Assembly (NCBI RefSeq): GCF_021155765.1
Contig: NC_060105.1
Coordinates: 8,553,501 to 8,617,500 of the forward strand
Direction of reading: 5' to 3'
Origin: Diprion similis
Lineage: Eukaryota > Arthropoda > Insecta > Hymenoptera > Diprionidae
DNA length: 64,000 bases
In this document: in pieces, positions 19,601 to 20,207 of the stretch
Numbering within the stretch: position 1 is the stretch's first letter
Layout of the letters: every line of letters begins with the position of its first letter
Translations under genes and position numbers: made by a program
The notes under the pieces: model-generated
What the model saw: only the letters and a program-made list of their open reading frames with translations
Databases searched by the model: none
Told to the model about the DNA's origin: nothing

Positions 19601-20207
19601 GAAAATGAAAGAGTCTGTGCTCAACTTAGCCTCTGTAAGTATTAATCAAAAGATAATTAATGTAATATACTTATGCAAATACTACAATAATAATTCAAAC
19701 TGAACTACTGCGTTAAATATAATTGATTTGTTAACTCCATTATAGTTTGAGAAAACAGCAGACCATCTGTTCGACGCAGCTTACTATGGACAGAAGGATA
19801 CCATCTCTGGTGTATCCGAGTCAATAATCGTTGGTATTCCAGTCCCTGTTGGCACAGGAATCTTCAAGCTACTTCACAAATATCCTTTTTTGACTATCGA
19901 TTCATGCATATTTCATTTGTGTTTCTCCATGATTTTATTCAGAACAGTGAAGTCCACATTAAGTGATCAGAAATCGTCTGTAGAATTTACAGCAAGATTT
20001 GTATTAAAGAAAATAATTTTTTTTTTAAATGTTTTAAATTCGCGTAGCTTTGGAATTCACTTTCTGGAATGCACAATGCAATCAATAGAGTGCTATTATT
20101 TTCCTTAAAAATAAAATACAGCTGAGGATAGTAAACCTGAAAAGAGAAAACTGATATTTGATGACCCGCAATATCACAAGAAGATAACGAAACCTACACC
20201 GACCTAG
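13603..20207 (+). CDS. POLR3A: DNA-directed RNA polymerase III subunit RPC1
   Basis: Largest catalytic subunit of RNA polymerase III, which transcribes tRNA, 5S, U6 and 7SK. Twenty exons join without a phase conflict: 13603-13646, 14021-14156, 14423-14572, 14638-14973, 15084-15416, 15494-15631, 15704-15901, 16014-16250, 16447-16780, 16862-17111, 17262-17491, 17576-17926, 18020-18188, 18285-18624, 18717-18904, 18978-19125, 19209-19361, 19434-19634, 19746-19879, 20120-20207. The product is 1385 residues; animal RPC1 is about 1390. Visible motifs are the N-terminal zinc-binding clamp ([20 protein letters not shown]), the Mg-binding NADFDGDEM at about 497-505, the bridge-helix/trigger-loop region ([20 protein letters not shown]) and [20 protein letters not shown]. 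The last intron, 19880-20119, is not GT-AG but a U12-type AT-AC intron. The short C-terminus after it varies between species. Confidence 0.97.
19880..20119 (+). other. POLR3A: U12-type AT-AC intron in RPC1
   Basis: No GT donor joins the conserved FKLLHK end of exon 19 to the C-terminal exon. The sequence at the junction is ATATCCTTTT, an exact U12 AT-AC donor. The intron ends in AC at 20119. A branch-site match, TTCCTTAAA, lies at 20101-20109, about 10 nt from the acceptor (consensus TTCCTTAAC). Joining 19879 to 20120 restores phase (AA|A = Lys) and an in-frame stop. This predicts removal by the minor spliceosome (U11/U12, U4atac/U6atac). Confidence 0.88.

What the first reader, a model, noticed from the sequence alone, without database searches (positions are those of the whole stretch)
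19880..20119. Minor-spliceosome AT-AC intron as the last intron of RPC1
Every other RPC1 intron fits GT-AG. Here the junction shows the exact U12 AT-AC donor ATATCCTTTT, a TTCCTTAAA branch site at the right distance and a terminal AC. Phase and the reading frame to the stop are restored only by this splice. A Pol III subunit would thus depend on the minor spliceosome, whose U6atac RNA is itself a Pol III product, so a feedback link is conceivable. The splice sites are seen; the feedback is inference.
Basis: partly seen in the sequence, partly recalled or inferred. Interest (0 to 1): 0.72.

Follow-up and report, generated by a model that had tools for sequence, protein, structure and literature searches.

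The report
Rare-class intron in Pol III gene
The last intron of this animal's gene for the largest RNA polymerase III subunit carries the sequence marks of the rare AT-AC class cut out by the minor spliceosome; that is a new example of a known kind, and the proposed feedback loop is untested.

Summary
Window 13603-20207 (+) encodes a 1385-residue RPC1 (POLR3A) orthologue in 20 exons; 18 of 19 introns are GT-AG and the last, 19880-20119 (240 nt, phase 2), is AT-AC. It has donor ATATCCTTTT, branch-site-like TTCCTTAAA, 11 nt from the presumed branch A to the 3' end, and terminal AC. Splicing there restores the frame and the tail found in human RPC1. The genome encodes U11, U12, U4atac and U6atac, and its syntaxin-6 gene, whose fly orthologue is a listed U12-intron gene, shows an AT-AC intron with the same ten-base donor. 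So it is very probably a genuine U12-type intron; no RNA was available. Corrections: it is not at the position of the last intron of human POLR3A; other splices also keep a frame, though none gives the same protein; the intron reads open in frame up to its own branch motif. The U6atac genes look Pol III-transcribed, so a loop is wired on paper, but dosage sensitivity is unshown, and in human cells with a weakened Pol III U6atac rises. A new member of a known kind; fairly low interest.

The parts
13603..20207 (+). RPC1 / POLR3A orthologue, 20 coding exons, 1385 aa
   Evidence: Model (its end was set one base too far; TAG is 20205-20207); phmmer to human RPC1 2131.9 bits, query 1-1377 to chain 1-1386
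19746..19879 (+). exon 19, ending at the second base of the Lys codon (phase 2)
19880..20119 (+). intron 19, U12-type AT-AC, 240 nt
19880..19889 (+). U12-type 5' splice site ATATCCTTTT; predicted to pair with the U11 5' end and with U6atac AAAGGA
   Evidence: the same ten letters open the syntaxin-6 AT-AC intron
20101..20109 (+). U12-type branch-site-like TTCCTTAAA (last base A where the recalled consensus has Y); presumed branch A at 20108, 11 nt before the intron end
20118..20119 (+). terminal AC
20120..20207 (+). exon 20 with the conserved C-terminal tail and stop TAG
20106..20108 (+). TAA that ends the retained-intron reading frame, inside the branch motif
20110..20115 (+). AATAAA hexamer just upstream of the 3' splice site (possible poly(A) signal if the intron is kept; inferred only)
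19809..19810 (+). position equivalent to the last intron of human POLR3A (c.4024/4025, codon 1342); no intron here
   Evidence: the mapping is my arithmetic on the alignment

Best explanation
19880-20119 is a functional U12-type (minor) AT-AC intron, the last of 19 introns of RPC1. U11 and then U6atac pair with ATATCCTTTT, U12 pairs with TTTTCCTTAA, and the minor spliceosome joins 19879 to 20120, giving the conserved RPC1 tail. If the intron is kept, translation runs on for 75 codons and stops at the TAA in the branch motif, so the tail would be replaced; being the last intron, retention should not trigger junction-dependent decay (inference). Making full-length RPC1 therefore needs the minor spliceosome; a regulatory loop via U6atac is possible but unproven. 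Shown: the sequence signals, the restored protein, the snRNA genes. Inferred: the splicing itself and everything about regulation.
For: Exact donor, branch-site-like motif, spacing and AC end; joined protein matches the human RPC1 tail; phase 2, in line with the reported bias of U12 introns against phase 0 (PMC7367187, passages); 240 nt against a median of 92.5 nt for the 18 GT-AG introns. Minor snRNAs over Rfam cut-offs: U12 110.8 bits, U11 89.1 and 55.2, U4atac 86.3, U6atac 84.9 and 83.8. Predicted pairing with the genome's own RNAs: U11 -8.5, U6atac -7.1, U12 -11.6 kcal/mol. Positive control: syntaxin-6 carries ATATCCTTTTAC...GCCTTAACTTCACACATAC, and fly Syx6 is one of 19 fly genes with putative U12 introns (PMC2952598, section 7 with Table 1 read).
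Against: No RNA evidence. The last base of the branch motif is A, not Y (consensus recalled). Pairing energies alone are weakly selective: 1187, 932 and 222 of about 63,990 window positions do as well for U11, U6atac and U12, on stretches of 11-13 bases. A strict genome pattern for short AT-AC introns found 2 matches against 7 for the reversed control. Of two genes looked at as positive controls, prospero showed a GT-AG junction where I looked. Minor-spliceosome proteins were not established. Orthologous introns in other animals could not be examined.
Confidence: 0.95

Rival explanations
1. A GT-AG intron is used instead: donor 19809/19810 (the human intron position) to acceptor 20122, skipping 24 codons.
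For: In frame to the stop; combined score 8.7, just above the weakest real intron of the gene at 8.6.
Against: Its acceptor scores 2.9, below all 18 real ones (lowest 3.1), and 17 of 18 real introns score 11.3 or more in total (the matrix was made from those introns). The splice removes 72 coding bases, the stretch from GVSE to LLHK, which aligns with human and largely with yeast RPC1.
Confidence: 0.02
2. The intron is normally retained; the true C-terminus is the 75-residue read-through.
For: In-frame open for 226 of 240 nt; 26 of 5000 dinucleotide shuffles do as well.
Against: About 0.5% for this intron, near 10% if 19 introns are allowed for, and intron 4 is also fully open, so chance is enough; no NCBIfam family up to E 1 and no Pfam family over its cut-off (best E 0.16) in the read-through; the conserved tail downstream would be unused.
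Confidence: 0.02
3. It is an AT-AC intron removed by the major (U2) spliceosome.
For: U2-type AT-AC introns are listed at very small percentages in some species (PMC7367187 Table 2, part seen as a passage).
Against: U12-like donor and branch motif at the right spacing; no long polypyrimidine tract just before the AC; minor snRNAs present.
Confidence: 0.01
4. The intron sits in a real regulatory loop (compatible with the best explanation): Pol III makes U6atac, U6atac limits RPC1 splicing, RPC1 limits Pol III.
For: Two U6atac genes with TATA at -31 and T-run ends; the U12, U4atac and main U11 genes lack a TATA there. U6atac is reported as limiting and unstable in human cells (PMC6865273, passages; PMC3728624, start of abstract and passages). 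In fly U6atac mutants RT-PCR showed more unspliced U12 introns (PMC2952598, section 7).
Against: In POLR3B-mutant human cells U6atac rises (PMC10896340, passages); in the fly mutants most of the 19 U12 genes changed only mildly on arrays (PMC2952598); nothing was tested in this animal.
Confidence: 0.08

Closest known systems
U12-type AT-AC introns (minor-spliceosome introns), e.g. the syntaxin-6 one in this genome
   Same: Donor ATATCCTTTT, CCTTAA branch motif 11-12 nt before the AC end, non-zero phase, 240 and 482 nt long
   Different: The host gene is RPC1; in the papers that I saw none names it as a U12-intron gene
Last intron of vertebrate POLR3A (c.4024/4025)
   Same: Also interrupts the last part of the coding sequence
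   Different: Lies 23 codons upstream, phase 1, canonical acceptor site (PMC7064625, passages); exon 31 is the last exon in mouse (PMC11065635, passages), so no intron at the present site is expected in vertebrates (inference)
Drosophila set of 19 genes with putative U12 introns
   Same: Shares syntaxin-6 with this genome
   Different: No Pol III subunit in the list (PMC2952598 Table 1)

Membership tests
U12-type AT-AC intron | 5' splice site ATATCCTT | tested here: met
   19880-19887 exact
U12-type AT-AC intron | branch site TTCCTTRAY shortly before the 3' splice site | tested here: met
   TTCCTTAAA, 8 of 9 positions of the recalled consensus, presumed branch A 11 nt from the end
U12-type AT-AC intron | AC terminus that restores frame and homology | tested here: met
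U12-type AT-AC intron | minor spliceosomal snRNAs in the same genome | tested here: met
   U11 two, U12 one, U4atac one, U6atac two, all over cut-off
U12-type AT-AC intron | minor-spliceosome-specific proteins | tested here: inconclusive
   zf-SCNM1 no match, and no control genome rang; zf-U11-48K 5 matches, not assigned to genes
U12-type AT-AC intron | splicing shown in RNA and dependent on U12/U6atac | not testable with these tools
   no reads available
RPC1 (POLR3A) | closest to RPC1 rather than RPB1 or RPA1 over the whole length | tested here: met
   2131.9 bits to human and 1383 to yeast RPC1, against 846.9 for the best RPB1-type chain and 523.7 for the best RPA1
Autoregulatory loop via U6atac | Pol III dosage changes U6atac and U6atac changes RPC1 splicing | not testable with these tools
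   only promoter architecture could be read

The most novel reading that the evidence does not exclude
The last intron is a switch on Pol III itself: when U6atac (a Pol III product) falls, the slow U12 intron is kept, translation runs into the in-frame intron to the TAA in the branch motif, transcripts may be cut using the AATAAA at 20110-20115, and a tail-swapped RPC1 escapes junction-dependent decay and lowers or retunes Pol III; a homeostat hard-wired in one lineage.
Probability: 0.05. Interest if true: 0.75.

Novelty: new member of a known kind. Interest (0 to 1): 0.27.

Why it matters
It would make the core subunit of Pol III depend on the minor spliceosome in a lineage whose U6atac genes look Pol III-transcribed, giving a simple place to test whether U12 introns act as regulators. 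As an intron it is ordinary in kind. Its position, not that of the last vertebrate POLR3A intron, and the absence of Pol III genes from the fly list make it a useful data point for gain or loss of minor introns.

Tried and rejected
Relatives: viral contigs and genome-contig scans with the 140-aa C-terminal part found no relative, so conservation of the intron in other animals could not be tested with sequence. A processed copy of RPC1 lacking the intron, which would have proved the splice, was sought and not found: the own-genome search returned the gene's own exons (three places) plus three weaker matches of 36-44% identity, two on C14 and one on C5. Paralogues: the C14 gene (RPB1-like by its motifs, my reading) reads GCFDLLLDAEKC without a break at the equivalent place, but has a GT-AG intron about seven codons upstream, inside its GTG-C motif; the C5 locus reads GTGSFDLMHRMEMYIPSQ and then a stop, which I did not resolve. 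So no sign of the intron in those paralogues, on thin evidence.

Short AT-AC pattern search: 2 matches against 7 in the reversed control, not informative. Prospero as a second positive control: the junction that I looked at is GT-AG in this genome; that flies have a twintron there is recalled, so this control did not help. SCNM1 and U11-48K zinc fingers inconclusive. The read-through tail has no family over cut-off.

Literature: searches for POLR3A with U12-type, POLR3A with minor intron, Pol III with U12 terms, U12-type intron with RPC1 (no paper) and minor intron with RNA polymerase III subunit listed no paper that I saw naming an RPC1/POLR3A minor intron; I opened only some of the listed papers and saw passages, except for one section read.

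Full report
What is there. The window holds, on the + strand at 13603-20207, a complete gene for the largest subunit of RNA polymerase III. I fixed 20 exons by hand from frame, splice signals and fit to RPC1; the joined protein has 1385 residues and matches human RPC1 nearly end to end (query 1-1377 on chain 1-1386, 2131.9 bits; best RPB1-type chain 846.9, best RPA1 523.7). Eighteen of 19 introns are GT-AG. The nineteenth, 19880-20119, begins ATATCCTTTT and ends TTCCTTAAAAATAAAATAC. Splicing 19879 to 20120 gives ...[20 protein letters not shown]..., which aligns with the human tail.

Is it more than chance? The donor 8-mer is common in this genome (9,958 on both strands against 8,348 for the reversed pattern), and the branch-plus-AC pattern is not clearly enriched in the window (6 against 3.74 expected). 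What is improbable is both lying at the one junction that homology demands, of order 5e-8 by my arithmetic. None gives the same protein; all 74 lose exon bases and 37 also keep intron bases. The best, 19809 to 20122, scores 8.7 against 8.6-19.9 for the real introns but deletes 24 codons of a conserved stretch; the other 73 score 3.1 or less. The scoring matrix was made from the gene's own 18 introns, which favours them.

Can this genome splice it? U11 (two loci), U12, U4atac and U6atac (two loci) all exceed Rfam cut-offs. The second U11 locus has a changed 5' end and pairs poorly with the donor (-2.5 against -8.5 kcal/mol). The donor with U11 and U6atac, and the branch motif with U12, form unbroken predicted duplexes, although such pairing alone is not rare in this window (1187, 932 and 222 of about 63,990 positions do as well). 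As a positive control I took syntaxin-6, whose fly orthologue is in the list of 19 fly genes with putative U12 introns (PMC2952598, section 7 with Table 1 read). Here it has a 482-nt AT-AC intron with the same ten-base donor and a CCTTAAC branch motif, and joining its exons gives a continuous syntaxin-6 reading frame. A second intended control, prospero, showed a GT-AG junction where I looked. A strict pattern for short AT-AC introns was not enriched (2 against 7).

Comparison with vertebrates. The human acceptor variant c.4025-1G>A (PMC7064625, passages), exon 31 containing p.C1346Y (PMC9664542, passages) and exon 31 being the last exon in mouse (PMC11065635, passages) place the last vertebrate intron in codon 1342, phase 1. 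The present intron falls in the codon equivalent to human 1365, phase 2. They are different positions, so the intron was either lost in vertebrates or gained on the other side; published work holds that losses dominate (PMC2831892, passages). No other insect genome could be examined, and that the host is an insect was taken from the finding, not tested. The RPB1-like paralogue in the same genome has no break at the equivalent place, though it has a GT-AG intron about seven codons upstream.

The feedback idea. The two U6atac genes carry a TATA box at -31 and end in T runs, as expected of Pol III genes (recalled); the two U6 loci have similar TATA-like stretches, while the U12, U4atac and main U11 genes lack one there; the second U11 locus has one only near -85. 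The wiring therefore exists on paper. For it: U6atac is reported as limiting in human cells (PMC6865273, passages), and fly U6atac mutants accumulate unspliced U12 introns (PMC2952598). Against a simple loop: U6atac rises in human cells with a weakened POLR3B (PMC10896340, passages), and on arrays most of the 19 fly genes changed only mildly (PMC2952598). Nothing here measures dosage.

Two features that bear on retention. The intron stays open in the RPC1 frame for 226 nt, with the stop inside the branch motif; 26 of 5000 shuffles match that, about 10% if 19 introns are allowed for, and intron 4 is open throughout, so it may be chance. An AATAAA lies at 20110-20115, just before the 3' splice site, and the first hexamer of the two types sought (AATAAA, ATTAAA) after the stop is ATTAAA at 20254. 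In an AT-rich stretch this too may be chance. Together they define what retention would make: a tail-swapped protein in a transcript that should escape junction-dependent decay (inference).

Verdict. A genuine-looking U12-type AT-AC intron in RPC1, confirmed at sequence level, ordinary in kind, unusual in host gene. I saw no paper naming it in the searches, but the insect survey most likely to list it could not be read.

Noticed in passing
window 11940-12819, - strand, and 13603: A LARP7-like gene (La domain and RRM; best solved match La-related protein 7, E 8.5e-36) lies divergent from RPC1, its open frame ending about 0.8 kb upstream of the RPC1 start. LARP7 binds Pol III transcripts such as 7SK and U6 (recalled), so two Pol III-linked genes stand head to head.
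   Followed up: partly
window 8908-9619, + strand: GAR1-like H/ACA protein gene with a glycine-arginine-rich end (Pfam Gar1 E 9.3e-19; open frames).
   Followed up: partly
window 20748-21328, + strand (may run further): The gene after RPC1 encodes a Parkin co-regulated protein (Pfam ParcG, E 8.9e-31).
   Followed up: partly
window 14974-15083 (RPC1 intron 4): GT-AG intron with an odd donor, GAG|GTCCTT, open in frame throughout its 110 nt; the donor was chosen by length fit to human RPC1.
   Followed up: no
L020 (G000 C6:1945255-1945645): Second U11 locus scores lower (55.2 bits) and has a changed 5' end that pairs poorly with the U12 donor; a diverged variant or pseudogene.
   Followed up: partly
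L030 484-965 (syntaxin-6): AT-AC U12-type intron of 482 nt with the donor ATATCCTTTT, phase 1.
   Followed up: yes
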